Below, piece by piece: positions 1-64,000 of a stretch of 64,000 nucleotides of DNA (the first letter of the stretch is position 1; each line of letters opens with the position of its first letter). Location of the stretch: the NCBI GenBank assembly GCA_949751835.1, contig CATKHK010000131.1, positions 24,148-88,147 of the forward strand, in the 5' to 3' direction. Below the pieces are notes generated by a model. It ran no database searches, had not been told where the DNA came from, and was given only the letters and a program-made list of their open reading frames with translations. The DNA is from Blepharisma japonicum. Taxonomy: Eukaryota > Ciliophora > Heterotrichea > Heterotrichida > Blepharismidae. The position numbers and the translations under genes were made by a program.

Positions 1-2
1 AT

Positions 3-2885
3 TTTGTTTATTTACAGGTTGCAAGTAGCATTAATTTGCGAAATACAACATTTTATAGAGGAAGTTCAAACGATAGTGGAGGGGCAATATATTCAAGCTC
101 AAGCTTGGTATCTGTCGACTCGTGCATTTTTGATGAATTGTTATCCCCAAGAGGAGGAGCAATTTATGCTACTTTTGATAGCACTATTATTGTTAATAAT
201 TCTAATTTTAAACGTTTATCAAGCTCGACAGCAGGCGGGATAATAAATGCGAATCAAGCCACTTTGATTATCAAAAATTCAAATTTTCGTGAGTTTTCTT
301 TTACTGGAATATATGGTAAACAATTAAAATATTTAGAAATATCGAACTCATCCTTTACTAATGGCCTAGGAATTGATGGTGGTGCAGTCAGTTGTCAAGC
401 ATGCAGTAAAGTAAATATCAATTTATGCACTTTTATAGATAATTCTGCATCTTTGTATGGTGGTAGTTTATATTTTGATTCTAGCAGTGAATTCGCAGAT
501 TTTTATAATATTTTTTCTTGCAAATTTATTAATAACATTGCGGCAAATGGAGGAGCAATTTTTGGAAGTGATGTTAACTTAAACATTTCATCATCAGTTT
601 TTAAACAGAATAAAGCAGATACCGAATTCGATCATGCAAAGATAGAATATGGAATTGGTGGAGGAATTAAAATAAGCTGCGCTAATATTCAATCATGCAA
701 GTTTAAAATTAAATCCAATAATTTCATAGAAAACTATGCAAAATATAATGGTGGAGCTTTAAGCTGAGACAATCAATTACCTGAGTTTTTCAATAACTCT
801 TACCAGAATAATACTGCTTTGTATGGAAAAGACATAGCTAGTTTCCCAATAAAATTGATGAGAATCAATGAAAGCGGAATTTTAGAAGATTATGGAAGTA
901 GAAGAAGATTGGGCGGACCTGTATCAAGCTCGAATTTAACTGAAATTGCATCTGGACAGAATTATAAAAACCAGCTTTGTGTTGCCTTAGTAGATAATAT
1001 GGATAATGTCATAACGACTGACAATTTAAGTGAAGCAGAGCTAAAATCAGTCAACTCAACAACCAAAATTTCTGGCAAAACCAAAGTTACAGCAGTAAAT
1101 GGTATTTTTAATTTTTCTGAGTTTGTTATTTCAGAAGAGCCAGGGTCAAATATACAAATAACAGTTATTTCCTCAGCAATTGATGCTGCTAAAATAAAAA
1201 AATCAGGCCAGAAATTTTACAGCCAAAATTTGACTTTTAATGCAAATGTCAGAAAATGTGAATTGGGTGAAGTTACATCGGGAAAAAACTGCGAAGTATG
1301 TCCTGAAGGGTTTTATAGCTTAAATCCAAATTTAATTTCTTGCTTGGCCTGTCCAGAAATAGCTGAATGCTATGGAAATTATACAATGGTTCCGAAGCCT
1401 GGATATTGAAGAGATAATTTATATACAGATAAGTTTTGAAAATGTCCCCATTCTCCAGCTTGTTTGGGCTCTCCTAATAAAATTAACCTCTCTTATACTG
1501 GTGAATGTGGAATGGCTTATCAAGGCAATAAGTGTCAAGCTTGCAAATCAGGATATTCACATACAATGGACAACAAGTGTGAGGAATGCCAAAGCGTTAC
1601 AGTAAATATTGTGACTACAACAGGAGTTTCTTTAGCGCTTATCATTTTATTATTTATTCTTGTAAGAGCGACGAGAAAATCTGCTTTTAGACCAAGATCT
1701 CATTTATCGATTTATATAAAAATATTTTTGAATTATATTCAAATGGTAATTTTAGCATCCACATTTAAACTCAACTGATCTGAAGAAGTTATAGGCCTAT
1801 TTAAAGTTCAAAACAATGCTGACTATGTCTACCAGCAAATTTATTCATTTCAATGCCTCTTCCATAACGAAAAGTCTCAAAGCTTGATTTATTATAGGAT
1901 ACTAATCATCGTAGGGTTAATTCCAGTTCTGATAATTATTATGTCATTTTTATTTTGAACTATTGTCAAAATATTGAAAAGATCTTATAAAACATTTTTT
2001 GATGATTTCATATCAACTTGTATTATTTTGCTGTTTTTAATCCATCCAAGTATAGTGAAAAAAATGTTTTCATCAATGAACTGCTCAGAAATAAACAGCG
2101 GGGAGTACTGGATTGAAGAAGATTTAGACATTAGATGTTGGGATTATGAGCATATATTTTATGTGCTGACTGTTTCTTTACCATCTATTATTTTGTGGGG
2201 AATCATTTTACCCACAGTTTGTTTAGCACATATGATAAAAAATAGAAAGTCTCTAAACGAGATAAGCATACGCCTTAGATTTGGATTTCTTTTCAATGGA
2301 TACAAAGAAGAACACTTTTACTGGGAATTTATCATTTTATACAGTAAAATTATTCTTATCTGCTGCTCAGTATTTTTAACGAGAATTTCTATTAAAATTC
2401 AGGCCCTTATTGTTGCAATTTTATATTCAATTTATCTCAGACTTCAATATTCCAATAATCCATACAATGAATACAAATTAAACCAAATGGAGCTGAGGGC
2501 AAAGCTTGTCTGTGTAGTTACCATCTATTGTGGACTTTATTATTTAATGGGATCATTAAGTACCCTGGCAAATATTTTTTTCTTTATATTGATTGTTATA
2601 GCAAATATTTATTTTCTAGTTTATTGGGCATATTATTTAATCAAATCGCTTTGCTCTGCGATATTTAAGAAAGTAAACTATTTAAGAAGTAGAAGAAAAG
2701 ATAGAAGTGAGTCTGCACTGAGAAGCTTAAGAAGTGTTTTTGAAGAGTCAAAATTAGAATCAAGGAGTGTTAATCTGTCAATTGCCTCAAATGACAATTT
2801 AATAAATGAAAGTCAAGCTCCAGTTGATACTGCTAAAAACAATAAAGAAAATTTTGAGGAAAGCTCTAAAATTATCAATGCCTAA
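3..2885 (+). CDS. Subfamily B LNR/beta-helix multi-TM surface protein, 3' part
   Basis: The 5' end lies outside the window. One continuous frame runs from base 3 to TAA at 2883-2885, about 960 residues, when TGA is read as Trp (TGA at 765, 1407, 1776 and others). It contains the last beta-helix turns (GGAIYA, GGGIKI and FxxN motifs), the juxtamembrane block KDIASFPIKLM, a Cys-rich stalk (GEVTSGKNCEVCPEGFY, then GYWRDN and CLGSP), and about 8 hydrophobic helices. These carry the family motif FGFLFNGY...FYWEF near 2281-2325. The tail has SIASNDNL..ESQA. It is nearly identical to 16640-19531, so the two are recent duplicates. The role is inferred to be surface adhesion or reception; the ligand is unknown. 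No frameshift is seen, so the gene is probably functional. Confidence 0.9.
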
Positions 2886-3447
2886 AGAAATTATTTGCTT
2901 AAGATAATAATTTTAAGCTTTAGCTAGATATATGAAATATAGGACCTTAATATCAGGTAAACAATATCCATTTTGATACTTTATTTTAAATTATTTTTCA
3001 ATTTTCTAAATCAGCTATTTAAAAAGTTGAAAACTATCTGTTTTATTTCTTTTTTAATTACTAAAACCATACAGAAGTTATTTTAAAATAATAAATGAGC
3101 CTTGATTTATGCGCTAAAACATTAATCTTATTTAATCTATTTATAAAAATTTAAAATACAATCTAATTTCTTTTAAATTAAATTTATACTAATGGATAAC
3201 TTAATACTCTAATTGAAATTTTTTAGTTTATTAAATAAACTCTCAATCATCATAATTGATAAAATTTAATTGCTAAATTCAAGGATATTTTAAAAATTTT
3301 TTTTGCTATCAAGAGACATTACAAATCTCTTGAAATGATATAAAATTCTTTAATCTGGGTTGCAGGGATATTTGAAATGTTTATATTATTAGGAACTATT
3401 GTATAAATCTATATATAAGAAAATGATTAAACTATTTGTAATTATAA
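2886..3447. other. Intergenic, duplicated B-to-A spacer
   Basis: AT-rich non-coding spacer between a B gene and an A-type N-terminus. It aligns along most of its length with 19532-20070, the spacer in the same position of the second dyad, including a shared TATATATAAG box at 3410-3419. No gene or RNA was recognised in it. Confidence 0.7.
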
Positions 3448-3937
3448 ATGAAATACTAATAATTTCCTTTACTCTACTGTTAACTAAGGATAAAGTCCTT
3501 GAATGCCACTTATCTGCTTGCCCAGATATTAGGATAAATTTAATTTAGAAGTAAATCAAAAATGTGATCATAGCTGTATGACTTCGTACTGCAATTTTGA
3601 TATAAAGCTGGGTACTGATGGAAAAATTAATGAAGAAAATTTAGATTGCTATGAAACTTGCATTAATTTCGACGGTTGCGACCCAGAAAAACTTGGAAAT
3701 GGGATATGTGACAATTTTTGTAATACACAAAACTGCAGATTTAACTGAGGAAATTGCACTTGCACTCCTGTCTGTTTATACTTAATACTAGGAGATGGTA
3801 ATTGTGATGAGACTTGTGATAATTGAAACTGTGTTCTTGATAATCACGATTGTGGGCTTTGTACAGATTGATGCTTTCATATTATGCTCGGGAACGGAGT
3901 TTGCGACTCAGAATGCAATAATGAAGATTGTTTATAT
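3448..3937 (+). pseudogene. Relic of a subfamily A N-terminus (signal peptide and LNRs)
   Basis: It is homologous to the first exon and LNR region of the A gene at 20071. It is broken in several ways. A one-base loss after codon 3 puts TAA-TAA in frame. The 15-nt intron (aligned at about 3531-3545) has lost its GT donor: it now begins AT, although the rest (TTTAATTTAG) is conserved. Homology stops abruptly near 3937 in the fourth LNR. The intact A gene starts only 59 bp further on. This is the downstream end of the segmental duplication that also copied the B gene before it. Confidence 0.85.
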
Positions 3938-3995
3938 CTCGAAATTCATAATTTATAAAAAATAACCCAAAAAAAATTTCTCAAATTCTAATAAT

Positions 3996-6900
3996 ATGAA
4001 TTACTTAGTGATTCTTAGCATTTTATGGTCAGCAAAAAGCATAGATCTAACCTGCCCTTTATCAGTTTGCCCAGATATCAAGGTAATTTTAAAATAGAAA
4101 GGTGATCATAGATGCAACCCTGAATGCATGACATCCTACTGCAATTACGATACAAATTTCCAGCTTAATGGATCACTACTAAAAGAAAGCTCTGATTGCT
4201 ACGAGAATTGTGTAAGCCTTGATGGCTGTGATCCTCAAAATCTAGGAAATGGTGTCTGTGATAGCTCTTGCAATACTGAAAACTGTGGATTTGATTGAGG
4301 CGATTGCACTTGCTCTCCAGGATGCTTGGACTCAATGCTTGGTAATGGAAATTGTGACGAAGCATGTGATAATTGAGACTGCGATCTTGATAACCACGAC
4401 TGTGGCCATTGCGCAGATGGATGCTTTCCAACTATGCTTGCAAATGGAATCTGCGACCCTGAATGCAATAATGAAGAATGTTTATATGATTATCAAGATT
4501 GCCGATGCTCAGATAATTGTTTATGGACTGATTATGGATCATGCAAGCCAGAGTGCATGGTAGCAAGTTGCAATTTCGATAAAGTAGATCTATATCCAAA
4601 TAATTGATGCCTTAATAATTCTTTGGCGATTTTCTCTTCTTATCAGCAGATCATCCGTGACAATTTTTCATATGTTGTGCATTTGGAAGATTGTTATGCT
4701 GCTTCTAATTATACATGCTCGTTAGAAAAGGCATTAGACTTTTTAAATTGCTATGAAGAGTGCAATATCCTGGAATGCAATTACGCAAATGGTAACTGTA
4801 ATCAGGAAACGAATTATTATTCTTTTTGTCAACGTTCTTATCAATCTTATAATGGATGCTTATCTTGCCGTTACTATATTAATTATTTACGGATTTTATG
4901 AAATAAAAATTGCTATCAATCATATGATGTTAACAACAATATTAAAACATTTCCAGATGGATATCCAGTTTCAATACCTATAATTGATACTTCATCATCA
5001 AAAAATCCTCATGTTTACTTTGTAAAATCAGAGGGTGACCCTAGCTCATATATTGGAAATGGAACATATTTTTACCCTTATGCAAGTATTTCGTATTGCC
5101 TTTCGATGATAATCCATGATTATTCAGTTATTTACATTTTAGGAGGAGATTATAAAATAGCTCCACATTACACTCCTAATAAAAATAACAGATATGTAGA
5201 ATACGCTATTCCATGAAAAGCTTTTAAAAATTTCTCTGGAAAAATTATAAAAATTAGTCCTTGAAACAGCACTTCAACAACTATAAGAAGAGAAGAAATT
5301 AATTCTCCAGACACCTTTGAGTTCTATATACAGAAAGCCAAACTCTTCGAGATAAATAACATCATTTTTGACTGGGAGGATACAATGCCAGATTGCTCAA
5401 GTGGCGAATATTGTGATTATTGCCCAGTTGTTGTCTATGATTCAGTATCAGATGCCTATTACAACGATAGAGGCGAAATCATAGACAAATTCTTACCCTT
5501 ATCCTGATGCTCCAGATATAATAGTGCTTTATTTTTCCTGTTAGTATCAAGCAACTTAGTTCTTACTAATGTAACTTTTACTAATTTCCGGATTGATTTT
5601 TCTTCAATTATATGCACAATGAATGGAAGTAACATAACTTTAAATAATGTCACTTTTGACAATATAAAAGTTTATGATCAAGACGGTTCAGCAATAATAG
5701 CAACAGATGTATGTGGTAGTGAACTAGACCCATACGAAGAAAAAATCAATCAAAATATCTATGGAAATCTGAAATTTGAGAATGGATCTGTTAGTAGAAT
5801 CAATAATGGATATGAAATAAAGGATGAAATCAATTTAAAAGGGTTTTTAAACATTGCAAATATATCTACTATTGTTTTTAGGAATGTTGAATTTCAAAAT
5901 AATGTGGTTTTTAAAAACTCATTGGCTGGAACCAGTGAAGCCTCACTTTTCTCTTTGAAAAATTTTCAATCACTTTTAATTGATTCTTGCTCTTTTTCAT
6001 ATAACTATTGCGATTTAGGTCTAATAAATATAGAACAGGACAACAATAATTTTACTATTGAAACAAATGATAGAGGAGAGATAATTTACTCAACATTGAG
6101 CCATATTCATATTTATATTTCGAATTTTATATCAAATTTTGGAAAAGCTGCTGGAATTCTATATGCAAATTATAAGGATGAAACCCAAAATTTCCTGATC
6201 GAAAATTCATTATTCATTCTAAATGGCGTTGAAGCTGGCACTTTGATCCACATTGAAAGTAGTTATGCCAATCAAAATTATTTACAGGATAGAGTTATAA
6301 GCCTGACTACTTCAAATGAAAATCCTACTGAAGGAAAATACTTAGCGAAATGAATGAAAATTCTTAACTCAAGATTTAATGAAAATCATTCAGGTGGGAA
6401 TGGGATAATTGACGTGTCTAAAATGATTAATATTGACTTAGAAAACATTGAAATTAGCAATAACGGAGCCACTTCCTCTGCAGCTATGAATGTCAATTCA
6501 ATAATTATAAAATATTTTATTGAAAATCCTGATTTATATATTAGACTAAACATAGTGGATCCTCCTGATTTAAATCTTCAGAATTTATCATTCATTTCTG
6601 ATTCTATCAATGCTAATCTATTGTCTGTGAACGTCAAAAATAATTACTCTAAAAATTCTTCTCCTGCGATCCTTATATCAAATACAATAAACATAACAAT
6701 AAAGTCGTCTAATTTTGAATATAATAGTGGATCAAGAAGTAATGGAATTTGCTTAATATTAGATGCAAATTCTTTAGTAACAATAAAAGATTCCGAATTC
6801 AATTCAAACACAAATCATGAATCTGAAAGCTTGGGAGCTATAAGCAGTCTTTCCAGCTTATTTCTGCAAAATTGTTCATTTTACAATAATTCTGGAGATT

Positions 6901-9900
6901 TAGGAGGTGCATTATATTTTGCAGGGCAAAGTCTTTATATAAATTCTTCTAATTTTGATTCAAATAGATCACCAAATTTAAATGGAGGTGCTATTTATTT
7001 TTCAATTTCGACTACCAGTAATATGACACAGCAATTTTATATTTATCACACCATTTTTGAAAATAATTTTGGAGGTGTTAATGGTGGAGGAATTTTTATT
7101 CAAAGAAATTCTGCTTTAAAGTACATATTATCACTAACTATTTTAAGCACTTATTTCTACAATAATCAAGCTTTAGAAGGCTCATGCATTTATATTGATA
7201 GCAACACTTTTATATCTGTAGATTCTTCGATCAGTAACTGTGACTTTCAAGAAAATAGGGCATGATTTTCAGGCACAATTTCAGTTCATTATATAAGTGG
7301 ACTGCTTTTTTTGACCCAATGCTCATTTATAAATAATTCTGGCGCTTATAGCTCTGTATTTAATATTGCGATAGGAGAGAATACTGAAATATCAACCTCA
7401 AAAATGATTTTTAATTCCTGCACTTTTCAATTTAATTCAGGAATTGCAACAATATCTCTAGATAATCCAAATATAAATTCTACATTGAAAATAAATGATT
7501 GCTTATATGAATACAATAAAGGGACAATATTTACACTGGATAACGATTATGTCCTTGATAATGGCTCAAGATACAGGCATAATTCCTCACCTAATTCTGG
7601 AGCAGCACTCAATTTGAAAAATTCAGCAGTTTTTCAATCAGAAAAAGCAACATTTCACAACTGCAGCAGTGGAATTGATGGAGGAGTAGCTTCAATTAGT
7701 TTGAAGTCTCGCTTTTATTGTTTTTCATGTGCTTTTATTCAAAATGTAGCAGAATCCTCAGGAGGTGCTATATATGCAGACACAGATGCTCAATTTCATC
7801 TTTATAGTTCTATATTCAACAAAAACACATGCAAAAATAGAGGCTCGGCAATATTCATGGCAACTAGTTCAGTTGGCTCCTCAATATACAATACAGAGAT
7901 AAGTGAAAACTATGCAAATAATGAAGGAACAATAACTCTTTTATCATCACTTATTTCGATTGTTTCCTCAAAAATGTCAAATAACTCTGCCAGTGGAAAA
8001 AGCCCAGGCATTTTCCTAGAGGACTCTGATGCTACAATAATAAATAGCACTTTTTCTAACCAAAAAGGAGATCAAGGATGTTTTATCCTATTGAGTATGA
8101 GCCATATGAAGGTGGTCAATTCAAATTTTCATGATGGCCTCTCAAATAGTTCAGGAATTGCTATACATGCGACATCTAGTACTGTCAACCTTGTCTCAAC
8201 GTCATTTGAAAATCTTTTTGCAGTTGACAGTGGAGGAATGATTTATCTATATGATAGTAGCACAATGTATTGTGAGAATTCAGTCTTCATTAGTTCAAAT
8301 AAGTCAATTGATACGTCTTCTAGCTCTCTTTTTATTTCAAATTCATCTTTTAAAAACTATAGTAATAGTGCTATCTCAGGGACACAAATATTCAGTCTAT
8401 CAATATATAGTTCAGAGTTTTTGGATGGTTATGGCATTAATGGAGGCGCTTTATACTGCTGGGAATGCAGTGACATTTCAATTAGCTCATCTATTTTCTT
8501 AAACAATTTTGCCGAAAATGGTGGAGCTATTTATATTTTAAATGAAGCAGATTTTTCTGAGTATTCTCAATGCGATATCACTTTCTCTACATTTATATCA
8601 AATGCAGCTTATAATGGTGGTGCAATTTGGACTAGCAGCATAAATCTGAATATTTCTTCTTCAAGTTTCTATGAAAACTATGCTGAATCTCGACTGACTG
8701 TAACCTTTCAAGAAATACTAGATGGAATTGGAGGAGCTATAAAAATTGCTTGCAAAAATTCTGATAGTTGCTATTTTAATATTTCGTCAAACAATTTTAG
8801 CAATAATTGAGCAACTTATAATGGTGGATCGATAAGCTGAGATGACTTTAAGCCAGAGTTTAAAAATAATACTTTTTCGAATAATTCAGCAGAATATGGA
8901 AATGATATTGCTTCTTTTCCTGTGATGATTCTTTTTATTAATAATACCAGCAATCGAGTTCTTGCAGATGATTTAGAAGGTAGCATGATTCTAACTCTAG
9001 ATAATATTGCTTCAGGTCAGAAAAATAATCCACCTTTGACCTTTGCTTTAGTTGATGATCTTCATCAGATAATCACAACAGATATAACAAGCCAAGCTCA
9101 ATTAAAAAGTCTTAGTAATGACACAATTATATCTGGGACCTCAACTGTGTATTCTGTTAATGGGATTTATCACTTTGATGACTATGCAATTTCGGCAAAG
9201 CCTGGATCCCTGATTCAAATTTATATTGAATCATCAGCAATAGATAAATCAAAAAGCAGTGCAATAGAGCAAGTGATTCAAATGCCAAGCCAATTCCTTA
9301 TCAATGTTAAAATGAGACTATGCATAATTGGAGAGGCCACTGTTGGTCTTGAATGTGAAAGCTGCCTTGAAAATTATTATAATATTGATGCCAGAGATTC
9401 TAAATGCTTAGATTGCCCTTCCTCTGCGATTTGCTACGGAAATTATACGATAGTTCCAAAATCTGGTTATTGGAGAGATAATAAATTTACCGACCGTTTT
9501 TGGAAATGCCTTTACCCACCTGCCTGCTTAGGATCTAAGGATATTAAAAATATTTCTTTTACAGGAGTCTGCGAAGAAGGATATGAAAATAATTTGTGCC
9601 ATTCCTGCAAGGAAGGATACTCAAGATTGTATAAAAACGAGTGTCAAAAATGCCCTGATATTGTCACTAATGTTTTAAGACTTCTTGGATTTTTTGCTCT
9701 ATTAGTCTTTATGGCAATAGTTATAATAAAAACTTCTCGGAAATCTGCTTTTGAGCCAGCCTCTTCTTTATCAATTTATATAAAAATCTTTTGAAATTAT
9801 TTGCAGATTATGATTATAATAGCTACTTTTAACTTGAATTGGCCCCATGAAGCAGTTCAGTATTTTTACATCCAGACATGCATAGATTATATCGGAGCAC

Positions 9901-10988
9901 AATTATTTTCTATTGACTGCTTTTTGCAGTCCTCATATTCGAAGGACAAAATTTATTATTTCAAAATTATGATTACGAGCATGACTCCATTTTCCCTCGC
10001 ATTTATTTGTTTGCTTTTTTGGATTATTATTTATGCGATCCAAAAGAAAAATCTAAGAGAATTGAAAAATGATTATATATCATCATTTATAGTTTTGCTA
10101 TTTTTGATTCATCCAAGTATTATCGATAATATGTTTAGTATTTTTAGTTGCAAAGAAATAAATAGTGGAGAGTACTGACTTAATGTGGATCTTGGAATCA
10201 GATGCTGGGACTATGATCATTTATTTTATGCACTTTTATTCGCATTGCCTACAATAAATATTTGGATTATCGCAATTCCAGCACTTTGCTTCATAAAATT
10301 AGTAAAAAGTAAAAGTGCACTAGAAGATTCATTAACAAGACTGAGGTTTGGGTTTCTATTTAATGGGTATAGCTCAAAGTATTATTACTGGGAATTTTTA
10401 ATTTTATATCATAAGGTAATTCTGATTGTGTGCTCAGTGTTTTTTTCAAATATTTCAATAAATATTCAAGCACTCACATTAGCCCTCCTGCTAACTTTAT
10501 TTCTCCACATCCAAGCTAAAAACAAACCATATTGTGACGATATGCTCAATAAAACAGATATATTCTCTAGAGTATCTTCTCTTACAGCAATTATAATTGG
10601 TCTTTTCTTTTTGACTGGAGATTTAGATACTGTTGGAAAAAATATTTTACTTCTAATTTTATTGCTTTCTAACTTGCTATTTATCATCTATATCTCAATC
10701 AAGATCCTAATGCAGTTTTATATGTTTAAAATAGCTATTGGTGTATTTAATAGGATTTTTAATTTGAATAAGGGAAGAAAATATGTAGTTGATGTGGACT
10801 GTGAGATCTCAAATAAAATTGATAAAGAATATACACCTATTACTTCTCAAAATCAAAAAATTATCAGTACGGGAATATTTTCAGAAGATTCAAATATCGG
10901 CCATCTTGCAGAATTTGAGAGAAGTGCTAACATTCCAATTGAAGTAGATCCACTTCCCTCAGAGCAAAGCGATTTAGTTAAAGAATAA
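3996..10988 (+). CDS. Subfamily A LNR/beta-helix multi-TM surface protein
   Basis: Exons are 3996-4082 and 4098-10988, 2,325 aa, ending at TAA, with TGA read as Trp. The signal peptide is about residues 1-16. Cys-rich LNR repeats run to about 186, with GNGVCDSSCN and similar units. A pectin-lyase-like entry motif follows near 340 (YFVKS..GNGTYFYPYASI). The beta-helix spans about 530-1630, with many NGGAIY/GGAI and FxxN turns. The juxtamembrane block is NDIASFPVMMI. The Cys stalk starts near 1773 (GEATVG.ECESC, GYWRDN, ACLGS, GYSRLYKNEC). TM1 is near 1887 and about 8 helices follow, including LIHPSI and RFGFLFNGY...YYWEF. The tail ends DPLPSEQSDLVKE. The fold and topology follow known LNR and beta-helix families. 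The receptor or adhesion role is inference. All frames agree, so it appears intact. Confidence 0.92.
4083..4097 (+). other. 15-nt spliceosomal intron
   Basis: The sequence is GTAATTTTAAAATAG. It lies between CPDIK and KGDHRC, the same place as the first intron of every family member. It carries an in-frame TAG, so it must be removed. A is at position 10, as in all nine introns in the window. Confidence 0.93.
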
Positions 10989-18300: not shown

Positions 18301-19531
18301 TATTCTTGTAAGAGCGACAAGAAAATCTGCTTTTAAACCAAAATCTCATTTATCGATTTATATAAAAATATTTTTGAATTATATTCAAATGGTAATTTTA
18401 GCGTCCACATTTAAACTCAGCTGGTCTGACGAAGTTATAGGCCTTTTTAAAGTTCAAAACAATGCTGACTATGTCTACCAGCAAATTTATTCATTTCAAT
18501 GCCTCTTCCATAAAGAAAAGTCTCAAAGCTTGATTTATTTCAGGATACTAATCATCGTAGGCTTAATTCCAGTCCTGATAATTATTATGTCATTTTTATT
18601 TTGAACTATTATCAAAAAATTGAAAAGATCTTATAAAACATTTTTTGATGATTTCATATCAACCTGCATTATTTTGCTGTTTTTAATTCACCCAAGTATA
18701 GTAAAAAAAATGTTTTCATCAATGAACTGCTCCGAAATAAACAGCGGAGAGTACTGGATTGAAGAAGATTTAGACATTAGGTGTTGGGATTATGAGCATA
18801 TATTTTATGTGCTGACCGTTTCTTTACCATCTATTGTATTGTGGGGAATAATTTTGCCCACAGTTTGCTTAGCAAATATGATAAAAAATAGGAAGTCTCT
18901 AAATGAGATAAGCATACGCCTTAGATTTGGATTTCTTTTCAATGGATACAAAGAAGAACACTTTTACTGGGAATTTATCATTTTATACAGTAAAATTATT
19001 CTCATCTGCTGTTCAGTATTTTTAACAAGAATTTCTATTAAAATTCAAGCCCTTATTGTTGCAATTTTATATTCAATTTATCTCCGACTTCAATATTCAA
19101 ATAATCCTTACAACGAATACAAATTAAACCAAATGGAGCTGAGGGCAAAGCTTGTTTGTGTAGTTACCATCTATTGTGGGCTTTATTATTTAATGGGATC
19201 ATTAAATACCCCAGCAAGTATTTTTTTCTTTATATTGATTGTTATAGCAAATATTTATTTTCTAGTTTATTGGGCATATTATTTAATCAAATCGCTTTGC
19301 TCTGCGATATTTAAGAAAGTAAACTATTTAAGAAGTAGAAGAAAATCTCAAAGTGAGTCTGCAGTGAGAAGCTTAAGAAGCGTTTTTGAAGAATCAAAAT
19401 TAGTATCAAGGAGTGTTAATCTGTCAATTGTATCAAATGACAATTTATTAAATGAAAGTCAAGCTCCAATTGATACTGCTAAAAATAATAAAGAAAATTT
19501 TGAGGAAAACTCTAAAATTATCAATGCTTAG
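12359..19531 (+). CDS. Subfamily B LNR/beta-helix multi-TM surface protein
   Basis: Exons are 12359-12442, 12458-12692 and 12708-19531, 2,380 aa, ending at TAG. The start gives a signal peptide (MVFWLVFFLGQAFG) matching the minus-strand B gene. About 7-8 LNR units fill residues 25-290 (GDGICNEGCN, GNGVCNQECN, DNGICDEACH and others). A pectin-lyase-like entry with SPFETIEFAL is near 455. The beta-helix spans about 570-1690 and ends at KDIASFPIKLM. The Cys stalk begins near 1839 and TM1 near 1953. About 8 membrane helices include FGFLFNGY...FYWEF. The tail has SIVSNDNLLNESQA. Its last ~960 codons are almost identical to the partial gene at 3-2885. It forms a dyad with the A gene 539 bp downstream. 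The surface receptor or adhesin role is inferred. Confidence 0.92.
12443..12457 (+). other. 15-nt intron 1
   Basis: The sequence is GTAATTCCTAAGTAG, phase 0, at the family-conserved site after the first Cys cluster. It contains an in-frame TAG, which forces splicing. A is at position 10. Confidence 0.93.
12693..12707 (+). other. 15-nt intron 2 (B-specific)
   Basis: The sequence is GTAAATAATATTTAG, phase 1 inside the Cys codon of CAPSC. It contains an in-frame TAA. The same position is interrupted at 29904 and on the minus strand at 43781, so it is a subfamily B intron. Confidence 0.92.
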
Positions 19532-20040: not shown

Positions 20041-20070
20041 AACTGACGAAACCTATATTATAATTATTAA

Positions 20071-27021: not shown

Positions 27022-27174
27022 TTGTTCTTATATTCAGTTTTTAATTGAGATTGTGTTAAAATAGGTATTTTGCGTTTTAATATAGAATCTAATATGAAAA
27101 TATAATTAAGTAATCAAAACTTGTTAAAAATGAATTATCATTTGCTATTAAACCAGAATTTTATATCTTAGTAT

Positions 27175-44105: not shown

Positions 44106-44427
44106 TTATAAGATAATAGAAAAAGTTAATTTATGATAAGCTAATTTATCTATCTTGATAAATTTATATTATGTAAATATTAGATTTAATTTTTATCTTC
44201 TCTTAGGAGTGAGGGGATATCTAACAAGCCTACAAATTTTTAAATTTATTTATATAGAGCATAACAAATTAAAGTTGCAAAATTAGAAATTATTTTTTTA
44301 TTTTACAAAAAGAACTCTATGCACTAATATGATTTTTTTAACTATATATTGTGGAATAAATTTTAATATTTTTTAAACGAGAGAATTTGTTTCTGGAGTT
44401 GTCTAGATTCTAAATGTCTTTATCAAT
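44106..44427. other. Intergenic, B 5' flank
   Basis: AT-rich. The part next to the start (44106-44170) is repeated beside the relic at about 44966-45035, so promoter or leader sequence was copied with the gene. Nothing else was recognised. Confidence 0.55.
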
Positions 44428-51100: not shown

Positions 51101-52079
51101 TTTGCTTAATCTAATATTTTGAATTTTAGTATATACTATTAAAAAGAAATGCATAAAAGAAATGAAAGACGATTTTATATCAACATCTGTGATTTTGCTG
51201 TTTTTAATCCATCCAAGTATTATTGACACCATGTTTAATGCATTTAGCTGTAAAGAAATTAATTCTGGAGAATATTGGCTTAATGTAGATTTGGGAATCA
51301 GGTGTTGGAATCATGATCATATTTTTTACGCATTTTTGTTTGCCATGCCTACAATAGCTATATGGATTGTAACAATACCTTTGCTCTGCCTTATAAATTT
51401 GATTAAAAATAAGAGTTACTTAGGAGAAATTTGGATGAAAAAGAGATATGGATTCCTCTACAATGGATATAGAGTAAACTTCTATTATTGGGAATTTGCT
51501 GTTTTGTTTTATAAAGTAATTTTAATTGGCTGCTCAGTTTTCCTATCAAACATCTCAGCCAGTATTCAAGCTCTTACAGCAACTCTTTTTTTAGTACTAT
51601 TCCTTCATCTTCATTCAAAGAATGAACCCTTCAATGAAATATTTTTTAATAAGGCCGAAACTTTCTCAAGATTAGCTTCCTTGATAACAATTCTAGCTGG
51701 CCTTTGCTTTTTAACTAGCGGCTTGGGCACTATTGCTACATATATTTTACTTGTCATCTTAATATTTATCAACAGTTTATTTATCGCTTATATTTTAGCT
51801 AAATTTTTATTGCAATTTGCAATAATAGGCCGCATAATTACAAAAGTATGGAAATTTTTCTATTTAAGTGAGAAAAAATACACAGCTGAGATTGTTCCTA
51901 CTAACAAAAACGAGATCGATCAGAGTTGCAAAGATGTTCAAATAGACAACATAAAAATAGGGAGCACAGCAATACTTTCTGACAAAACAAAAATTGAAAT
52001 AGTGCTTGAGGAGGATTTAAGCGTTTCAGTAGAATTAGATCCTTTTTCATCTATGAGAAGCATATCTCCTTTGAACTAA
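45141..52079 (+). CDS. Subfamily A LNR/beta-helix multi-TM surface protein
   Basis: Exons are 45141-45227 and 45243-52079, 2,307 aa, TAA stop. The leader is MNYMIILLYLWLSKG. LNRs reach about residue 190 (GDGKCDKECD, GNGKCDPECN). The conserved SLAIFSSYQQIIR...HLEDCY block follows. The pectin-lyase-like entry near 335 has SGDGTYFSPFRSLYYAL. The beta-helix ends at GPDIASFPTMMI. The stalk begins near 1755 (GEATVGLTCEICP, ACLGSPD, GYSRLYRNEC) and TM1 near 1871. About 8 helices have LIHPSIID and YGFLYNGY...YYWEF. The tail diverges at the end (DPFSSMRS instead of SEQS). It is the only A gene here not directly preceded by an intact B gene on its own strand. Intact. Confidence 0.92.
45228..45242 (+). 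other. 15-nt spliceosomal intron
   Basis: The sequence is GTAAGTTTAATTTAG between CPDIK and KGNHKC, with an in-frame TAG. It is nearly the same as the intron at 20158. Confidence 0.93.
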
Positions 52080-53379: not shown

Positions 53380-53980
53380 ATAAGCCAGATGCATGGTAGC
53401 AAACTGTAATTATGATGGCATAACTCAATATTCAAACAGCCAATGCCAAATACCTCTCTAGCAATTTTTCTTCTTATCAGCAAATTATTTTCAAAAATTT
53501 GTTATATGTGGCTCATCTAAAAGATTATTATGAATCCTCAAATTACAAGGGTTCTGTTGTAAAAGCATTAAACTTTAACATGAGAATCGAAGCATTACTT
53601 TCCAAAGCTGCTGCATCCTCAACTTCAATGATCTATACATAAAAGATGCTTGCCATGCTCTAGGAGTAATTGAAATTCGTTTTAACTCTGAAGAATCAAA
53701 AATACATAGGCAGGGGGCAAGTTTGTTCAAGCCTATCTATTTTTCCAGATAGATCTAAAGTGGTTGTGCATTATGAAGATACCTCTTCATCCAAAATCCT
53801 CATATTTATTCATATGCCCAATGTCAAACTTAAATCTGGAAGTGGAGAATGACTTATTTTTCTCTTTTTTGATCACTTATTTATGCTGTGCATAATATTA
53901 ATTATAAATACTCAGTCGTTTATTTGCTAGACTGCGATCGCTGTAACTTGACAAGATAGAGTATGAAGAAATCAACAACA
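53380..53980 (+). pseudogene. Relic of an A-type N-terminal segment
   Basis: Homologous to about 45690-46325 of the A gene: the last LNR, the ISLAIFSSYQQII block, the HLEDCY region, and the DTSS..PH.Y entry into the beta-helix. It contains deletions, frameshifts and in-frame TAA and TAG codons. Homology ends near 53975, where a GC-richer patch begins. Confidence 0.8.
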
Positions 53981-53999
53981 ATTACAGAAGTGGTTGAAC

Positions 54000-54690
54000 A
54001 GTTTAATAAATATTAAATGGTGGCATGAAAAGTCAATCTCTCAAGGCTGTTTTAAGCTGGGATCAACTTAATGTTATGATAGATTATATGATTCTTGAAG
54101 AACTTGACAGATTTTAAGGCCCTTAGCTCAACCAAAATGTGCTGGCCTGATCGGATATCTTTTGTGCGTATAAACAAAAAAGGTTCTGGTCAAGCTAAAA
54201 GCGAGGCAAGCCGGACTGTGAGGAATCTCTGTCCATTTTGGAAGCTCTGGATTGGTAGTCTTATGTCGACTTCATGATTTCATCACTTCGGAGTTAAAAG
54301 GAAGTTTTGATATTTATCTCTGCTGCGTTAAATACCACTGGGGTAATAGTAGCTTATCAAGTGCATTATGGGTAAACTCATGGACTCAACCTTGCCGCCT
54401 AACGAAAAGTTCGCTCAGTCTATAATTTCACCGATTTTTAAGTTCCATCTTCTTAAACGTCCACTTGCTCGAGCTTTTGTAGCATGTCCTCCTGGTTTAC
54501 AGTCAGAAAACTTGAAAACAGATTTCAACTTCTTTTCATAAATGAAGTATACAGCCTAGGATGCGATGCCCAGTATCACTCTCGATGGCTTGCTAATAGC
54601 CTAGGGATCATCCAGGCAATTATTCTGCTGCTGTCTTCTTCGTCTCAAGAGTTAAGGCTCTGAACATAGCTAATTAGCTTTAATAGAATT
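54000..54690. other. GC-richer patch of unknown origin
   Basis: Base composition changes visibly from the AT-rich surroundings to nearly balanced (for example 54180-54280 and 54380-54660). No frame longer than about 60 codons exists in the local code, and there is no match to the LNR/beta-helix family. A 60-codon run at 54095-54277 and a C-terminal-looking run in another frame near 54480-54665 could be shards of one degraded gene or mobile element. I do not recognise it. Confidence 0.45.
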
Positions 54691-54800
54691 GCTATCAATT
54701 TTTGAGCTATAAATAACCCAAACGGCATATTTTAATAAGTGCTTAAGGCTAGTTTCAACATATATTTAATTATGATTTAAGATATATGAATTAAATAAAG

Positions 54801-57800
54801 TTAGTTTTTACTTATAACGCTCTGTTCTGATGGACAAGGATCTTGTTCTAGAGAGTTGATTTCTTTAATTCCTGCGAAATCAGCTAAATTCATGCTTTGA
54901 TAACTATCAATTTTGAAACTTGCTTTTGAATCCACATCTTCTATTATGTATGCTGCTTTACGATCTAAATACAAAATTCTAATGATAATTGAAACCAATT
55001 TTTTGAATAATGAAAATTGTGATAAAAGCATTCATGTTATATAGATTATAAAAAGAGCATTTGAAAACAGTACAGCTAAAAGAAGCAATAAAGCAGGTAT
55101 GTAATCTAAATGATCTACTAAAAAGAAAAGGCCAGCCAAAATAGTTATAAGAGAAATTATCCTTGAGAAAGTTTCTGCTTTATTAAAAGCTAATTCAGTA
55201 AAAGGAATATATTTAGCTTGTATACGAAGAAATAAGGCTAATAAAATGGCTACTGTAAGAGCTTGCACATTTATAGATATGTTTGACAAAAAGGCTGAAC
55301 AAGCTATTAAAATTATTTTGTAGTATAAAACTACAAACTCCCAATAATAATACTTTAAGTTGTACCCGTTAATTAAAAATCCATATCGAAGCTTGATTCA
55401 TATTTTATCTAATGAATTCTTATTTTTTATCAAATTTATCATACAAAGTGCAGGAACTGCAATAAGTCATATTATGATAGTTGGAAAGGCTATTGTAAAC
55501 GCATAAAATAAGTGATCACGATCTCAGCATCGAATGCCGAGGTCAACATTAAGTCAGAACTCTCCATAGTTTATTTGTTTGCAGCTGTAAATATTAAACA
55601 TGGTATTTATAATACTTGGATGAATTAAAAATATCAAGATAACGCATGCTGATATATAGTCATTCTTGATTTCTCTTAGATTTTTCCTTTTTATTAAATA
55701 AATAATTGTCCATATTACGAGTGAGGAGATAACCATGAAAAATGGAGTAACACTTGTGATTAAAATTTTATCATAATAAACATTGTACTTTGTCTCAGAT
55801 GATTGCAAAAAACAGTCAAATGAAAACAGCTGAGCCCCAATATAATCAATGCAGGTTTGAATATATAGTAGGTTAGCTAATTCATATGGCCAATTTAAAT
55901 TAAATGTTGCAATAATAATCATGGTTTGCAAATAATTCCAAAATATTTTTATATATATTGATGAAAAAGACTCTGACTTTAATGCTAAATTTCTTGCAGA
56001 TTTTATGATGGCGACTGAAATGAAAATTAATAGCATAAAAATTCCAAGCCACCTGAAAACATTACTTGCTGTATCAAGACAAGGCTGACACTCGTTTTTA
56101 TATAATCTTGAATAGCCCTTTTCACATGATTGGCACATATTGCTTTCATATCCTTTTTTGCAAATTCCAGTAAAAGATATATTAGAAAGGTCTGGAGAAC
56201 CTAAGCATGCAGGTGGATATGGACATTTCCAAAAAACATCAGTAAATTTATTATCTCTCCAGTAATCAGACTTTGGAACCATTGTATAATTTCCATAGCA
56301 AATAGCCTTAGAAGGACACTCTAGGCACCTAGAATCTTCAGCATCAATGTTGTAATAGAATTCTGGGCAAGCTTCACAACTAAAGCCTATTGTTGCTTCT
56401 CCAACTTCGCATAATCTAAAATTTGTATTTATTATGAACCCTTGTGACATTGATAACGAAATGGATGAAGTATTACTTTTTGATGTATCAATATCTTGGG
56501 ATATTATCATAATTTGAGTTGATGACCCTGGCTTTGCTGCAATTATATAGCCTTCAAAATTAAAGATCCCATTGTTTGCCTCAACAATTGCAATACCTGA
56601 AATAATTGTACTATCACTTATAGCTTGCAATTGAGCCTGACTGTTAATATCTGTAGTTACTATTTGATAAAGATCGTCTACTAGTGCAAAGACAAGTGAT
56701 GGGTTATTATCCTGTCCCGACCCAATATTATTTAATGTCAAATCAGAGTAGCTGTCAGAGATGACTTGCACATCAGAATTTTCCCCAGCTATGCTATTAA
56801 AAAAAATAATCATAGTAGGAAATGAGGCAATATCGTTTCCATATTGCGCTGAGTTATTTTCGAAAATATTGTTATCTAATACAGGCTTTGAGTTATCTCA
56901 ACTAATGGCCCCACCATTATAAGTTGCACTGTTATTGCTGAATTTATTTGATGATAAACCAAAACGGCAAACTGAAATTGACTTTTGGCAGCCTATTTTT
57001 ATCGCTCCTCCTATTCCATCTATGAGGTCTTGCAAACTTTCAGTTTGAATAGCTTCTGCATGGTTTCCAATAAAAGTGGAATCATTGATTTTTAAATTAG
57101 CATTATCTGTTCAAATTGCACCACCATTTCCAGCTGAATTTGAAATAAATGAAGACGAAGCAATAATGAACTGATAAGACTCAGAATGATCAACATTGTT
57201 TTCAATATAAATTGCTCCTCCATTATCAGCATAATTATTAGTAAAAAAAGAAGAACTTACAGAAATGTTAGAACAGGCTGAACAATAAATAGCACCTCCA
57301 TTTGCTCCAAAACCATAAGAAAATTCTGAGTTGGAGATTTCTAAGTCTGAATTTACTGCTGAAATAGCAGAATTAGAATAATTTCTAAATAAACTATTTT
57401 CTATAAAAATTGTACTTGAAGATGCATCAAAGGAACTATTTGTATTTATGAATTTTGAGCTTTTCACAGAAATAGCACTATTATCATATAAATAAATTGC
57501 TGCTCCAGAAGTATTTGTATACAGCCCTGAAAATTTGGAAGATGAAATATCTAAAATGCTAGAAGTTGCACGTATAGCAACTCCGGATATTTCTGAATAT
57601 CCCTCCAAAAATTCAGAGCGTTCTATTTTTGCAGAACTTGTGCCTAAAAGAAGAAAACATCCTTGCTCTCCACTTTGATTAGAAAATATGGTATTAATAA
57701 TTGTGATAAGTGAACCTTCTAGCTCTATGCTTGGATTTTTTCCTGCTGAATTTTTATTAACTTTTACTGAAGAAATAAGTAGCTGAGATGAAGATAGAGA

Positions 57801-60800
57801 TATGGTGGCCTCATTGTATGAATAATTTTCAGTTATTTCAGAGCCATTTATTACTGAATTGGATGAAGTACTAACCATAAATATAACAGATCCAGATTTT
57901 TGACAGGAATTTTTAGATAATAGGGAGTCAATAATAAAAAATTGCGCATCTGAGTCTGCGTATATAACACCACCTGAAGATCCGGCATAATTTATTGTAA
58001 AAACACAGGAGTAGCAAAAAAACTGAGATTCCAAACTAAGCGAAGCGACACCGCCATTAAGTTTGCTACTGTTATTCAAATAGGTTGAGCCTTCTGAGTA
58101 AAATATGGCTGAATTTTTTATATTTAATGCCCCACCAGAGCTAGGAGAATAATTGTGCTGAATTTTCGAATTTTTATCAAAAAGGTAATCATTATCAAGG
58201 GAATATACTGATCCTGTGTTATATTCAACTAAAGCTTCATTTATTTCTAAAGTTGAATTTATACTTGAATTTTCAAGAGATATAATTGCATTTCCTGAAT
58301 TAAACTGAAAAATATTGCTGTTTATTATCATTTTTGAAAGTCTTTCATTGCTATTTTCTCCAATATTTATACTTAGAGCTGAACTAAAAGTTCCAGTATT
58401 TCCAATAAAATAGCATTCATCAAAAGTAAGCACTCCATAGGCATAAAAGGCGATAAAGGCTGCTGAAGATCTTGATTGATTTTCTATAAATTTACAATTT
58501 TTTATTGATGAATCTATAGAAATCGGAATATTGCTATCAATATAGACACCAGAACCACTTCGAGCCCGGTTTTTTAAAAAATGTGTATCAATAAATGATA
58601 AAGATAAAACAGATTTCAAAAAACTGCTTTTATGGAAAAAAATACCTCCTCCATCAAGATAAGAGTAATTGTTAATAAAGGTGGTTCTTGAAATACAAAG
58701 TGAAAAAAACTCATAATTTTCGGAAGCCATTAAAAAGTATATTCCGCCTCCTTGTGAATTTGGAGAATTGTTTGAATCAAAATAAGAAGAAGTTATATTC
58801 AGAGCTGCCCCGGTGAAATATAAAGTCCCTGAGCCTATATTATTCGAAAATGTGCAATTTTGTATCAATAAATTGGATGAGCTACTAATTGGTCCTGGAC
58901 TCCCAGGATGATTATTTTTATTTGAAAAAAATTCAGAATTTTTGATAATTATCGAAGAATTATCAATTATGCTTATACATACACCATCGATACCTGAACC
59001 ACTGTTATCAAAAAAATAAGAATTGTCAATTGTAAAGTTTTCAGATTTAGAAATAATAAAATTTGGAGAATAATTTTGACAATAATTATTTTGAATTTGA
59101 GTTGATTCCATTTTGAAATTTATTGAGTCTGAAATTGAAGATAATGCCATGCAATTTAAATCTATAGGATTTATTGCAGCAAGTTTAGGATAGAGATTAG
59201 AATCTTCAATATAATGATTTATTAGTAGAGAATTGATATTCATTGCTTCATCAGTTGATATACCATTTAAATCCATATAGACTTCCTTTATCTCAATATT
59301 TATCATTTTAACTAGTTCTAACACACCATTTCTGCAAGAATAATTTTTAGTAAAATTTGAACTTTTGACTTTTCCTCACTTAGCTAAATATTTTGCTGTA
59401 ATAGTATTCCCATCAGGCATCTTGACATCCAACAGTGAATCAGCCAGGTAATTTATATTTAAGCTATGGCTTTCAAGGTGAATGAGCGTTCCATTTTCTA
59501 TACCGTTCATAGTAAAAGTGGAGTTTTCAATAAATCAATTTTGAATTTCATCGTTATAAATTGCATATAAAATGCCAGCAGTTTTTCCATAATTTGATGT
59601 AAAATTGGAATTCTTAATGTAAATGTGATTAAGTTTTGAATAAATAATTTCCCCTAAGCTGTCAACTTTTGTTTGATGATAATAGTCTCTTTGCTCTATA
59701 TAAATTATTCCCAAGTCGCAGTAATTATATGCAAAGGTGCACGAATCAATTAAAAGTTCTTGAAATAAATTCAACGATATCAATGAAGAGTTGCTTATCT
59801 TCGTCAAAGATTGTTTTAAAACTAAATTATTTATAAATTCCACGTTTCTAAAAACAGCTGAAGTAATATTAGCCGCATGTAAAAAGCCCATAGTATTAAT
59901 TGCATCTTTAAATTCATAGCCATTATTAAGTCTGCTAACAATTCCATTTTCAAATTTCAAATTACCAGAGTCATATTGCTCATTATTGACGCTATCTCAA
60001 ATAAAAACTGCTGAGTTATTTCCATCATATAGCTTTACATTATCAAAAGTGACGTTATTTAGTGTTACATTTCCATTTATCACATATATTAGCGAGTTAA
60101 AATTGTTCCTAAAATTCGTAAAATCTACATTATTCAGCACCAAATTGCTTTGTCTAACTTCAAAAAAGTTAATATTTTGATTTTCCTTGCACCAAGCTGT
60201 AGATAGAAAATTAGATATAATTTCCCCTCTGTCATTATATGTAAGGCGTGTATTTTGATCATAAGTAGTGAATGGGCAGTAATCACAATAAATTTCATCA
60301 TTGCAAGATGAAAGAGTGTTAGACCAATCAAAAATGATATTATTTATTTCCAAATTCAGCACATTTTTCAATGAAAATCAAAATATAGCTTTTTCATAAT
60401 AATTATCCTTTTTTGTTTTTATAATTATCTTTGAATTATTAAGAGTTGTTATTTTTATATGCTTTTGCTGAAAGTTATCTAAAAAAATATCGGCATATCT
60501 AGCATCTGTACTTTCAAGATACCCAAACCATAATGATTGTGTGTACAAAAAGTAATTTCCATCTTCTAATAAGTAAACAACAGCATAAGCATGATAGATT
60601 TTAGAAATTCCAAAAAAGTGATAAGGATAAGAATAAAGACCATATCCTTCATCTTCAGCAACGTTAGCACTTACAAAATAAACGTGAGGATTTTTAGCTA
60701 CAGAAGTATCAATCAAAGGATCTTTAGAATAAGCATTGTTTGGAAGTATTCAATAATAAGAATAATCTTTTAGTCGTACACAGCCTCTCTCTTTCAAGGC

Positions 60801-61472
60801 ATTAATAATAGTGTTGCCATAACTTTCGCAAGAAAAGCAGCCATATGAATTATTATAGGATCGCTCGCAATCATTAATAAAAGGGATTTCGCAATTCCCA
60901 TTTGCATAGTTACATTCAAAAATATTGCATTCTTCATAGCAATCTGAAAAAGATAAGGCTTTTTCCAGTGTGCAATTGTAATTTGAAGCTGCATAGCAAT
61001 CTTCGATATGAACGACGTAGGAAAAATTATAACGAATAATTTGTTGATAGGAAGAAAAAATAGCTAAAGAAGTATTTTGGCATCATGAATTTGGGTATTG
61101 GGCTATTTTATCATAATTGCAACTTGCTACTAAACACTCTGGCTTGCAGATGCCATATTCAGTTCACAAGCAATTATCTGAACACTGACAATCATTATAG
61201 TCATACAAGCAATCCTCATTATTGCATTTCGAGTCACAGACTCCATTTCCAAGCATAGTTGGAAAACATCCAGAAGCACATTGACCACAGTCGTGATTAT
61301 CTAAGTCGCAATCTCAATTATTACACTCTTCATCACAATTTCCATCTCCTAACATATAATCTAAACAGCCAGGAGAGCAAGTGACATCTCCTCAGCTAAA
61401 ACTTAATATTAAAATTCATCAGAAGGACAATTTTCAGTTGTACGATGATTGCACTTGTGACTTAATTTTCAT
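54801..61472 (-). CDS. Subfamily A surface protein with rebuilt or damaged 5' end
   Basis: One minus-strand frame of 2,223 aa ends at TAA (54801-54803), with TGA as Trp. The body is intact. LNRs reach about residue 117 and the SLAIFSSYQQIIR block follows. A beta-helix entry is near 260. GGAI and FxxN turns run to NDIASFPTMII. The stalk is near 1687 (GEATIGFSCEACP) and TM1 near 1807. Helices include YGFLINGY...YYWEF, and the tail has DPCPSEQSVISKN. The start is unusual. The signal-peptide exon is decayed upstream, about two LNR units are deleted, and the former intron acceptor has changed so that an ATG (61472-61470) now opens the frame. The new N-terminus has a hydrophobic run (LSFWWILILSFSW) that could act as a signal. 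It may be a newly dead gene or one with a new start. Confidence 0.75.
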
Positions 61473-62699: not shown

Positions 62700-63180
62700 T
62701 GTTTAATACCTAACTATAATGGGCAAGGACCATCCTGGCCATTTGAAGCAGCTTCCTTAATAGATAAATCGAGTATAAGTTTTATGCTTCGTTGACTTTC
62801 TATTTTAGAATCTTAGCCATTTGTATCTGAGATATCTTCCTCTGCATAAACTTTCTTCCTTCTTAATTAAATAATATTTAAAACATTTTTAAAGCTAGGA
62901 AATTGATTCAATAATATTAAAAATAAATATAGTGCTTGAAAGCAATACAATAAAATGCCAAATTCCTAATTGAATCTAAATCATTTGTTAAAAAGAAAAG
63001 CCAGTCAAATTAATTATCAATAAAATAACTCTTGAAAAATTTTGTCTTATTTAAAAATGCCTCAGTGTATGGCTGGTTTTTTAATTAAATATTCATAAAT
63101 AAAATTAAATAGACAGTTTTTGTAGGTGCTTGCATACTATTGATGTCTTTGACAAAAATGCTAGACAAACACAAAAAATC
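62700..63180 (-). pseudogene. Relic of an A-type C-terminus
   Basis: On the minus strand it aligns with the last membrane helices and tail of the A gene at 54801-55310. It runs from the VKDINSMQAPTK-like stretch (counterpart of NISINVQALT) to the tail motif with ESQRSIK, IKE and QDGPCP. Frameshifts and stops break it. It sits between the right-edge B gene and the A gene, so a B-A-A order existed on this strand. Confidence 0.8.
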
Positions 63181-63590
63181 TGATCTCTGGGAAAAAGCCA
63201 TGGATTCAATTAGAATTCTGAATTCACACTTGGCTGCTGTTAAAATAGTACATTTGCCAAGGAAAAGGAGAAATAGAACTGTTAAAGATATGTTGTGCAA
63301 ACATTCATCACTTCTAGTGAGATTTTCTCTAAAGCAAGACCATATGGAAGTTGTTGAAAATAATCCTTTGCTTCTTTGCATCATTTTTTAGCAAGACACC
63401 TTGGAATGAAATACACAGCGTGCTGTTTTCAATTGAAAACTACGAATATTGTAGAAGCTCTTTGTCTATCTATCTAAATTACAGAGGATCTGGTTTTCAC
63501 CTACAAGATCAGCCATTCGATCTCTGCCAGACTTTTGCAAATTTTCCTTTTATCCATTCACCAGCATTAGACATCGTGGGTTAGATATTT
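63181..63590 (+). other. Possible broken gene fragment, unrecognised
   Basis: Two plus-strand open stretches meet here: frame 2 to 63391 (charged, HLAAVKIVHLPRKRRNRTVK) and frame 3 from about 63370 to TAG at 63584 (NYRGSGFHLQDQPFDLC). Composition and residue use look protein-like and differ from the LNR family. A single frameshift near 63380 would join them, so this may be a truncated shard of another gene. The minus strand is also open here, so the call is weak. Confidence 0.3.
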
Positions 63591-63618
63591 ATTACATTTA
63601 TAAAAATATTTTTTTAAT

Positions 63619-63729
63619 TTATGCCTCTTCTTCACTATCAGAACGCCTATTGAGAATATCAAGCATTCTAAGTGCCCTTGTACGGTTTTCGACTTTAGAG
63701 ATCGAATCTCGAGATTTCATGGATTGCAT
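63619..63729 (-). CDS. Small ORF or gene shard, unrecognised
   Basis: A 36-codon frame starts MQSMKSRDSISKVENRTRAL and ends RRSDSEEEA before TAA. The charged, helical C-terminus-like content and the GC-richer bases differ from the AT-rich flanks. It stays open upstream to about 63786 if TGA is Trp. It could be the tail of a gene whose rest was lost. Function unknown. Confidence 0.25.
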   Translation of the reverse strand: MQSMKSRDSISKVENRTRALRMLDILNRRSDSEEEA

Positions 63730-63891
63730 GTTGGTCAGTTCACCCAAGCATCAACCTCATGTCAAGATTATTCAAGGGGGTGTAATAACTTGAGCTTAAA
63801 ATATCTAAAAGCTTGGCTTTTCAAATTCTATAACTATAATTTATAATTGTATTATTTTATTGTATTTATGAATGAATATATAATTTTAGGC

Positions 63892-64000
63892 TTAGCTTTC
63901 ATTATTTTCTTCTTGTCTTGCTATATCCTGACTGCTGCAATCTTTGCTTAAATTTAAAGCCTGGCTTTCAATTAATAATATATCATTCGACGCAATAGAA
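63892..64000 (-). CDS. Subfamily B surface protein, C-terminal end only
   Basis: The minus-strand frame enters from the right edge and ends at TAA (63892-63894). The visible tail has SIASNDILLIESQA and SKDCSSQDIARQ, very close to the tail of the B gene at 37032-44105. The 3' flank (63795-63891) also matches that gene's 3' flank. The rest of the gene lies outside the window. Confidence 0.85.
   Translation of the reverse strand, partial: SIASNDILLIESQALNLSKDCSSQDIARQEENNES

What the first reader, a model, noticed from the sequence alone, without database searches (positions are those of the whole stretch)
1..64000. A dyad array of two receptor-like subfamilies, possibly a recognition system
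Six complete or near-complete genes, two partial genes and several relics of one family fill the window. B is followed by A on the same strand repeatedly: B(to 2885)-relic-A(3996); B(12359)-A(20071); and on the minus strand B(63892)-relic-A(54801). Both encode LNR plus Pmp-like beta-helix plus 8-TM proteins with different tails. Paired, co-duplicated surface proteins with fast copy turnover would suit cell-cell recognition, mating contact, prey capture or adhesion. The role is inference.
Basis: partly seen in the sequence, partly recalled or inferred. Interest (0 to 1): 0.75.

Follow-up and report, generated by a model that had tools for sequence, protein, structure and literature searches.

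The report
Linked surface-receptor gene arrays in Blepharisma
A stretch of a pond ciliate's genome is almost filled by copies of two sister kinds of giant cell-surface protein that lie intermingled and partly duplicate together; whether they work as a recognition pair is still unknown.

Summary
The window is the last 64 kb of an 88-kb contig of a Blepharisma-type ciliate (TGA=Trp, 15-nt introns, CCCTAACA telomeres). Family genes cover about four fifths of it: seven open, full-length genes (not six), two genes cut by the ends, and relics at five places. A and B are real: reciprocally monophyletic sister subfamilies (19 and 13 rows of a 55-row tree) of a genome-wide family with LNR repeats, right-handed beta-helix, cysteine-rich module, about nine membrane helices and a variable tail. 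They share arrays on six contigs; on C9 and C11 both A and B branch apart from the rest, so the linkage looks old. The claimed rule 'B followed by A' is not supported: B>A and A>B are equally common (8 and 8 of 21 same-strand neighbours); unlike neighbours exceed shuffles only marginally (P=0.036 overall, 0.22 on this contig). Block duplication is shown; A>B neighbours track each other (6 pairs, r=0.93), with uneven dS. Selection is purifying, without significant positive windows. Recognition remains inference; the nearest precedent is MRC2, an 8-TM pectin-lyase-fold subunit of Tetrahymena's mating-type recognition complex.

The parts
1..2885 (+). B gene, 3' part (complete in the contig: C131:19860-27032)
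   Evidence: code-4 ORF 3-2885; 91% identical to B1 over its length
3456..3937 (+). relic: 5' end of an A gene (A2-like)
   Evidence: tblastn 88% and 78% to A2; end of the 8.3-kb duplicated block
3996..10988 (+). A1, complete; intron 4083-4097
   Evidence: 2325-aa model, no stop; Pfam LNR over cut-off
12359..19531 (+). B1, complete; introns 12443-12457 and 12693-12707
   Evidence: 2380-aa model, no stop; LNR and Chlam_PMP over cut-off
20071..27021 (+). A2, complete; intron 20158-20172
   Evidence: 2311 aa, no stop; LNR and Beta_helix over cut-off
27173..29404 (+). relic: 3' part of an A gene, broken frames
   Evidence: tblastn pieces, 40-77% to A2
29558..36730 (+). B2, complete; intron 29648-29662
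   Evidence: no stop; LNR and Beta_helix over cut-off
37032..44105 (-). B3, complete; introns 44007-44021 and 43766-43780
   Evidence: 2347 aa, no stop; LNR over cut-off
44416..44869 (-). relic: B 5' piece followed directly by an A 3' tail piece
   Evidence: tblastn to B N-termini (44537-44869) and A tails (44416-44511) and DNA match to C150 A 3' ends
45141..52079 (+). A3, complete; intron 45228-45242
   Evidence: no stop; LNR over cut-off
53381..54003 (+). relic: piece of the 5' half of an A gene
   Evidence: tblastn and DNA matches
54801..61472 (-). A4, complete with a shorter alternative N-terminus
   Evidence: ORF 54801-61505; in-frame ATG shared with two C150 paralogues; LNR, Beta_helix and Chlam_PMP over cut-off
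62720..63162 (-). relic: 3' part of an A gene
   Evidence: tblastn 39-45% to two C150 A genes
63783..64000 (-). 3' end and flank of a B gene that runs off the contig
   Evidence: DNA match, 80% to C137:6038-6240 and 70% to C131:61088-61269, the 3' ends of two B genes

Best explanation
A and B are two anciently separated sister subfamilies of a Blepharisma family of giant polytopic surface proteins. Shown: gene models, domain order, sister clades, shared arrays on six contigs, block duplication, relics, purifying selection. Inferred: the proteins sit in the plasma membrane with LNR repeats and a beta-helix outside and a divergent tail inside, and act as surface receptors or adhesins. A and B stay linked because they duplicate as blocks, A followed by B being the best supported unit, and their products probably work in the same membrane complex, the beta-helix and LNR part touching a partner cell, prey or matrix and the membrane bundle and tail passing the signal on. 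This would work like the Tetrahymena mating-type recognition complex, in which the 8-TM pectin-lyase-fold protein MRC2 is reported to co-purify with MTA and MTB; the touching and signalling steps are my inference.
For: Pfam LNR over cut-off in seven of seven complete genes; Beta_helix or Chlam_PMP over cut-off in four of seven (B1, A2, B2, A4); ephrin-receptor-like and DUF7630 weak matches in eight of eight C-terminal modules. Sister clades, bootstrap 100 and SH-aLRT 99-100. C9 and C11 genes form their own branch in both A (96/91) and B (95/83) and alternate A/B. Duplicated 8.3-kb block. Mantel r=0.93 for 6 A>B pairs, best of all 720 orders; r=0.82, P=0.00012 for 8 pairs. MRC2 precedent.
Against: No expression, localisation or binding evidence. 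Without C9 and C11, five B>A or divergent pairs show no agreement (r=0.04, P=0.37). Runs of A alone and of B alone occur. A>B gaps are short in three of five pairs (170-227 bp), but two A>A gaps are as short (188, 123 bp), so closeness is no mark of pairing. dS of A and B differ in matched blocks, in both directions. No shared upstream motif was seen by eye. The A row C9_279867 is a long branch whose place is unsure. The membrane bundle matched no solved fold, but the model is poor.
Confidence: 0.4

Rival explanations
1. Ordinary multigene array: A and B arose as neighbours by tandem duplication, and later block copies carried both along. Linkage is history, not function; the two proteins do not work together.
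For: Order is close to random on this contig (P=0.22); three A genes in a row on C150; unequal dS in matched blocks; other subfamilies also sit in arrays.
Against: A and B stay linked in both old branches, while the sampled genes of other arrays (three each of C60, C85 and C93) group by array or with one or two others; A>B neighbours track each other.
Confidence: 0.45
2. Variable surface antigens: one copy expressed at a time, switched like ciliate immobilisation antigens (recalled), to change the coat.
For: Many copies with relics and signs of exchange.
Against: No window with significant excess of amino-acid change among 550 in five pairs; no telomere repeat in the window, so no sign of a telomeric expression site.
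Confidence: 0.08
3. Feeding or mechanosensory receptors unrelated to sex, used for prey contact or touch.
For: A large, LNR-bearing, membrane-spanning family with many subfamilies suits broad sensing.
Against: No direct evidence either way.
Confidence: 0.2

Closest known systems
MRC2 of the Tetrahymena mating-type recognition complex (PMC10901506, passages seen)
   Same: Large membrane protein with a pectin-lyase fold and several (reported eight) membrane helices in a ciliate
   Different: Its sequence is not held here, so homology is untested; no LNR is mentioned in the passages seen; named there as one gene, not an array
MTA/MTB mating-type pair of Tetrahymena (same paper, passages seen)
   Same: Two linked genes for large membrane proteins with cysteine-rich modules
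   Different: MTA/MTB are head-to-head with five helices; here pairs are mostly tandem, about nine helices, and many copies. The B3/A3 pair is head-to-head
Metazoan Notch (LNR)
   Same: LNR repeats
   Different: No EGF array, no ankyrin repeats found; polytopic
Chlamydial Pmp proteins
   Same: Pmp repeats and beta-helix
   Different: Helical membrane bundle in place of the autotransporter barrel (the barrel is recalled)

Membership tests
MRC2-like mating-type recognition subunit | pectin-lyase-type beta-helix | tested here: met
   Pfam Beta_helix over cut-off in B2, A2, A4 and below it in B1, B3; Chlam_PMP over cut-off in B1, A4; no hit in A1, A3, which align along that region to the others
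MRC2-like mating-type recognition subunit | eight membrane helices | tested here: inconclusive
   hydropathy and poor models suggest nine
MRC2-like mating-type recognition subunit | sequence homology to MRC2 | not testable with these tools
   no Tetrahymena sequence held
MRC2-like mating-type recognition subunit | co-expression and co-precipitation with mating-type proteins | not testable with these tools
   no expression or protein data
MTA/MTB-type mating pair | head-to-head gene pair with five helices each | tested here: not met
   same-strand neighbours dominate (21 of 25 adjacencies); about nine helices; one divergent pair, B3/A3, in the window
Notch receptor | LNR repeats | tested here: met
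   seven of seven genes over cut-off
Notch receptor | EGF array, single helix, ankyrin repeats | tested here: not met
   no such Pfam match at E 1 in seven proteins; at E 10 a weak laminin-EGF match in the C-terminal module; several helices
Chlamydial Pmp autotransporter | C-terminal autotransporter barrel | tested here: not met
   C-terminus is hydrophobic helices; no autotransporter match listed

The most novel reading that the evidence does not exclude
A and B form an obligate heteromeric receptor whose genes are propagated as A>B units, making these arrays the heterotrich counterpart of a mating or contact recognition locus, with many paralogous pairs giving a repertoire.
Probability: 0.13. 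Interest if true: 0.75.

Novelty: new variant of a known kind. Interest (0 to 1): 0.45.

Why it matters
In the passages seen of PMC10892320 the gamone 1 receptor is called putative, though its reference list cites a 2009 antibody study of it in B. japonicum, which I did not see. A large family of polytopic surface proteins with two co-arrayed subfamilies gives testable candidates, and RNA-seq of synchronised conjugation is public (PRJEB45374, named in PMC9942806). If A and B do pair, it would be a second ciliate case, beside MTA/MTB, of linked membrane-protein genes used for recognition, built from a different set of domains.

Tried and rejected
Rejected: the B>A ordering rule. Alleles as the source of most copies: the matched copies measured differ at synonymous sites by about 0.12 to over 1, far above the heterozygosity reported for two B. 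stoltei strains (3e-5 and 5e-3), if this genome is of that kind. Not rejected for one case: the first 3.5 kb of C131 and of C198 match place for place at 95.9%, so C198 might be a variant of the same locus. Diversifying selection: five close pairs, 550 windows, lowest P 0.32 (a window of B' v B1 with 14 amino-acid and 2 silent changes). Fold of the membrane part: two predictions had mean pLDDT 52 and 50 and the PDB search gave 20 matches at E up to 10, none at 0.001. Relatives elsewhere: none confirmed in viral contigs or in bacterial and archaeal genomes with the C-terminal module, none in plasmids with the A1 membrane part, as expected for a ciliate family. PDB sequence searches gave LNR and ephrin-receptor stretches, and one weak beta-region match to FtbP (E 0.28). 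Shared promoter motif: 110 bases upstream of 16 genes were looked at by eye only. Literature: ten searches showed, in the titles and abstract starts listed, no paper on such a family in Blepharisma; one search listed 10 of 856 and 20 of 28; only open-licence papers are held. The words notch, beta-helix, pectin and membrane protein do not occur in the main text of PMC9942806. Limits of counts: one search scored 86 of 112 candidates and 150 of 501, so family counts are lower bounds; the tree holds 55 places, the remaining matches being fragments, relics or genes not fetched. C198, C98, C1, C32, C9, C11 and the arrays of other subfamilies were read only in part. The A>B Mantel test outside C9/C11 rests on six pairs, of which two close couples carry most of the signal.

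Full report
What the window is. It is G000:C131:24148-88147, the end of an 88,147-base contig in a 45.2-Mb, 224-contig genome. In-frame TGA is read as Trp and introns are 15 nt. The genome carries 168 matches to three CCCTAACA repeats and none to the reversed control; of the places listed, those on C7, C11, C36, C47, C69, C78, C80 and C89 lie within 500 bases of a contig end, and for C4, C5, C6, C17 and C38 I did not see the contig length. PMC9942806 (passages seen) reports the same code, intron size and telomere repeat for Blepharisma stoltei. So this is a Blepharisma-type macronuclear genome; the species is not fixed.

Gene content. With code 4 the window holds seven full-length open genes, A1, B1, A2, B2, B3, A3 and A4, of about 2,200-2,400 codons, a B gene cut by the left edge and a B 3' end at the right edge. 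A4 lacks the usual first exon, but its ATG and the following hydrophobic stretch are shared with two paralogues on C150. Five places hold relics. Family genes fill about 81% of the window (my sum of the lengths in the parts list).

Protein anatomy. Pfam finds LNR repeats over the cut-off in all seven, right-handed beta-helix or Pmp repeats over the cut-off in four, and weak ephrin-receptor-like and DUF7630 matches before the membrane part in eight of eight C-terminal modules; genome-wide DUF7630 matches fall in the same arrays, 31 of the 32 listed counted over the cut-off. A1 and A3 have no beta-helix hit of their own but align along that region to the others (33-52% identity to A1). Hydropathy and the secondary structure of two low-confidence models suggest nine helices, which with an outside N-terminus would put the variable tail inside; eight cannot be excluded. 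No solved fold was matched.

Family and arrays. The A C-terminal module gives 88 matches in the genome and the B module 63, lower bounds that include fragments; LNR repeats lie in most of the same arrays. A 55-row tree gives A (19) and B (13) as sister clades (bootstrap 100, SH-aLRT 99-100), inside a wider family whose other sampled clades lie in other arrays. A and B share arrays on C131, C150, C137, C198, C9 and C11. In A the C9/C11 genes form one branch (96/91, with one long and unsure row) and in B likewise (95/83), so A and B were probably linked before these arrays separated.

Order and co-duplication. Of 21 same-strand neighbours among intact or edge genes on six contigs, 16 are unlike, 8 B>A and 8 A>B. 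Shuffling labels within contigs gives P=0.036 for unlike neighbours and 0.15 for B>A; over all 25 adjacencies P=0.072; on C131 alone 0.22 and 0.34, and with relics 0.54 and 0.61. An earlier count without the edge B gene gave 0.052. So alternation is at best weakly non-random. Block copying is direct: C131:19831-28084 and 36474-44709 match at 91.5% over 8.3 kb, from before the B start to inside the following A; a B-minus and A-plus pair is shared by C131 and C137 at 89% and 80%. A and B distances agree across A>B neighbours (6 pairs outside C9/C11, r=0.93, best of 720 orders; all 8, r=0.82, P=0.00012). For B>A or divergent neighbours all 8 give r=0.74, P=0.002, but the 5 outside C9/C11, of which 3 are same-strand B>A, give r=0.04, P=0.37. 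Synonymous divergence in matched blocks is unequal: A exceeds B in two clear cases (0.61 v 0.36, 0.78 v 0.27), and between C9 and C11 it is 0.86 for the closest A pair against 1.64 for B. Conversion or separate copying must also act.

Selection. Pairwise dN/dS is mostly 0.1-0.4, usually lowest in the cysteine-rich or membrane part and usually highest in the tail, where it reaches or passes 1 in two very divergent pairs (14 pairs). Sliding windows in five close pairs show no significant excess of amino-acid change. The copies are kept as working proteins, without the mark of an arms race.

Reading. The safe reading is a mixed array of two old sister subfamilies of giant surface proteins, growing by block duplication and decaying by deletion. 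The step to a recognition pair is inference. It gains some weight from MRC2, reported as an 8-TM pectin-lyase-fold protein of the complex that co-purifies with mating-type proteins in Tetrahymena (PMC10901506, passages), but homology to MRC2 could not be tested. Expression and localisation data would decide.

Noticed in passing
window 61614-61731: GC-rich minisatellite with a 25-base unit in the gap upstream of A4.
   Followed up: no
C150:8540-14861: Three mutually similar stretches of about 1.4-1.8 kb (82-86% identity), outside the A/B genes.
   Followed up: no
C1:970283-971737 and C32:14479-16533: An A gene near the right end of contig C1 and a B gene near the left end of C32, the only A/B match listed on each, suggest that the arrays are broken between contigs.
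   Followed up: partly
C131:576-3518 and C198:576-3530: Both contigs begin inside the same A gene and match place for place at 95.9%: an assembly break at a shared repeat, a recent copy or an allele.
   Followed up: no
C137:16480-23292 and 40605-47414: Two A genes share an 86.8% identical tail while the rest is 69-76% identical, a sign of tail exchange by conversion.
   Followed up: no
window 44416-44869: Relic in which a B 5' piece abuts an A 3' tail on the minus strand, as if a B>A pair had lost everything between.
   Followed up: partly
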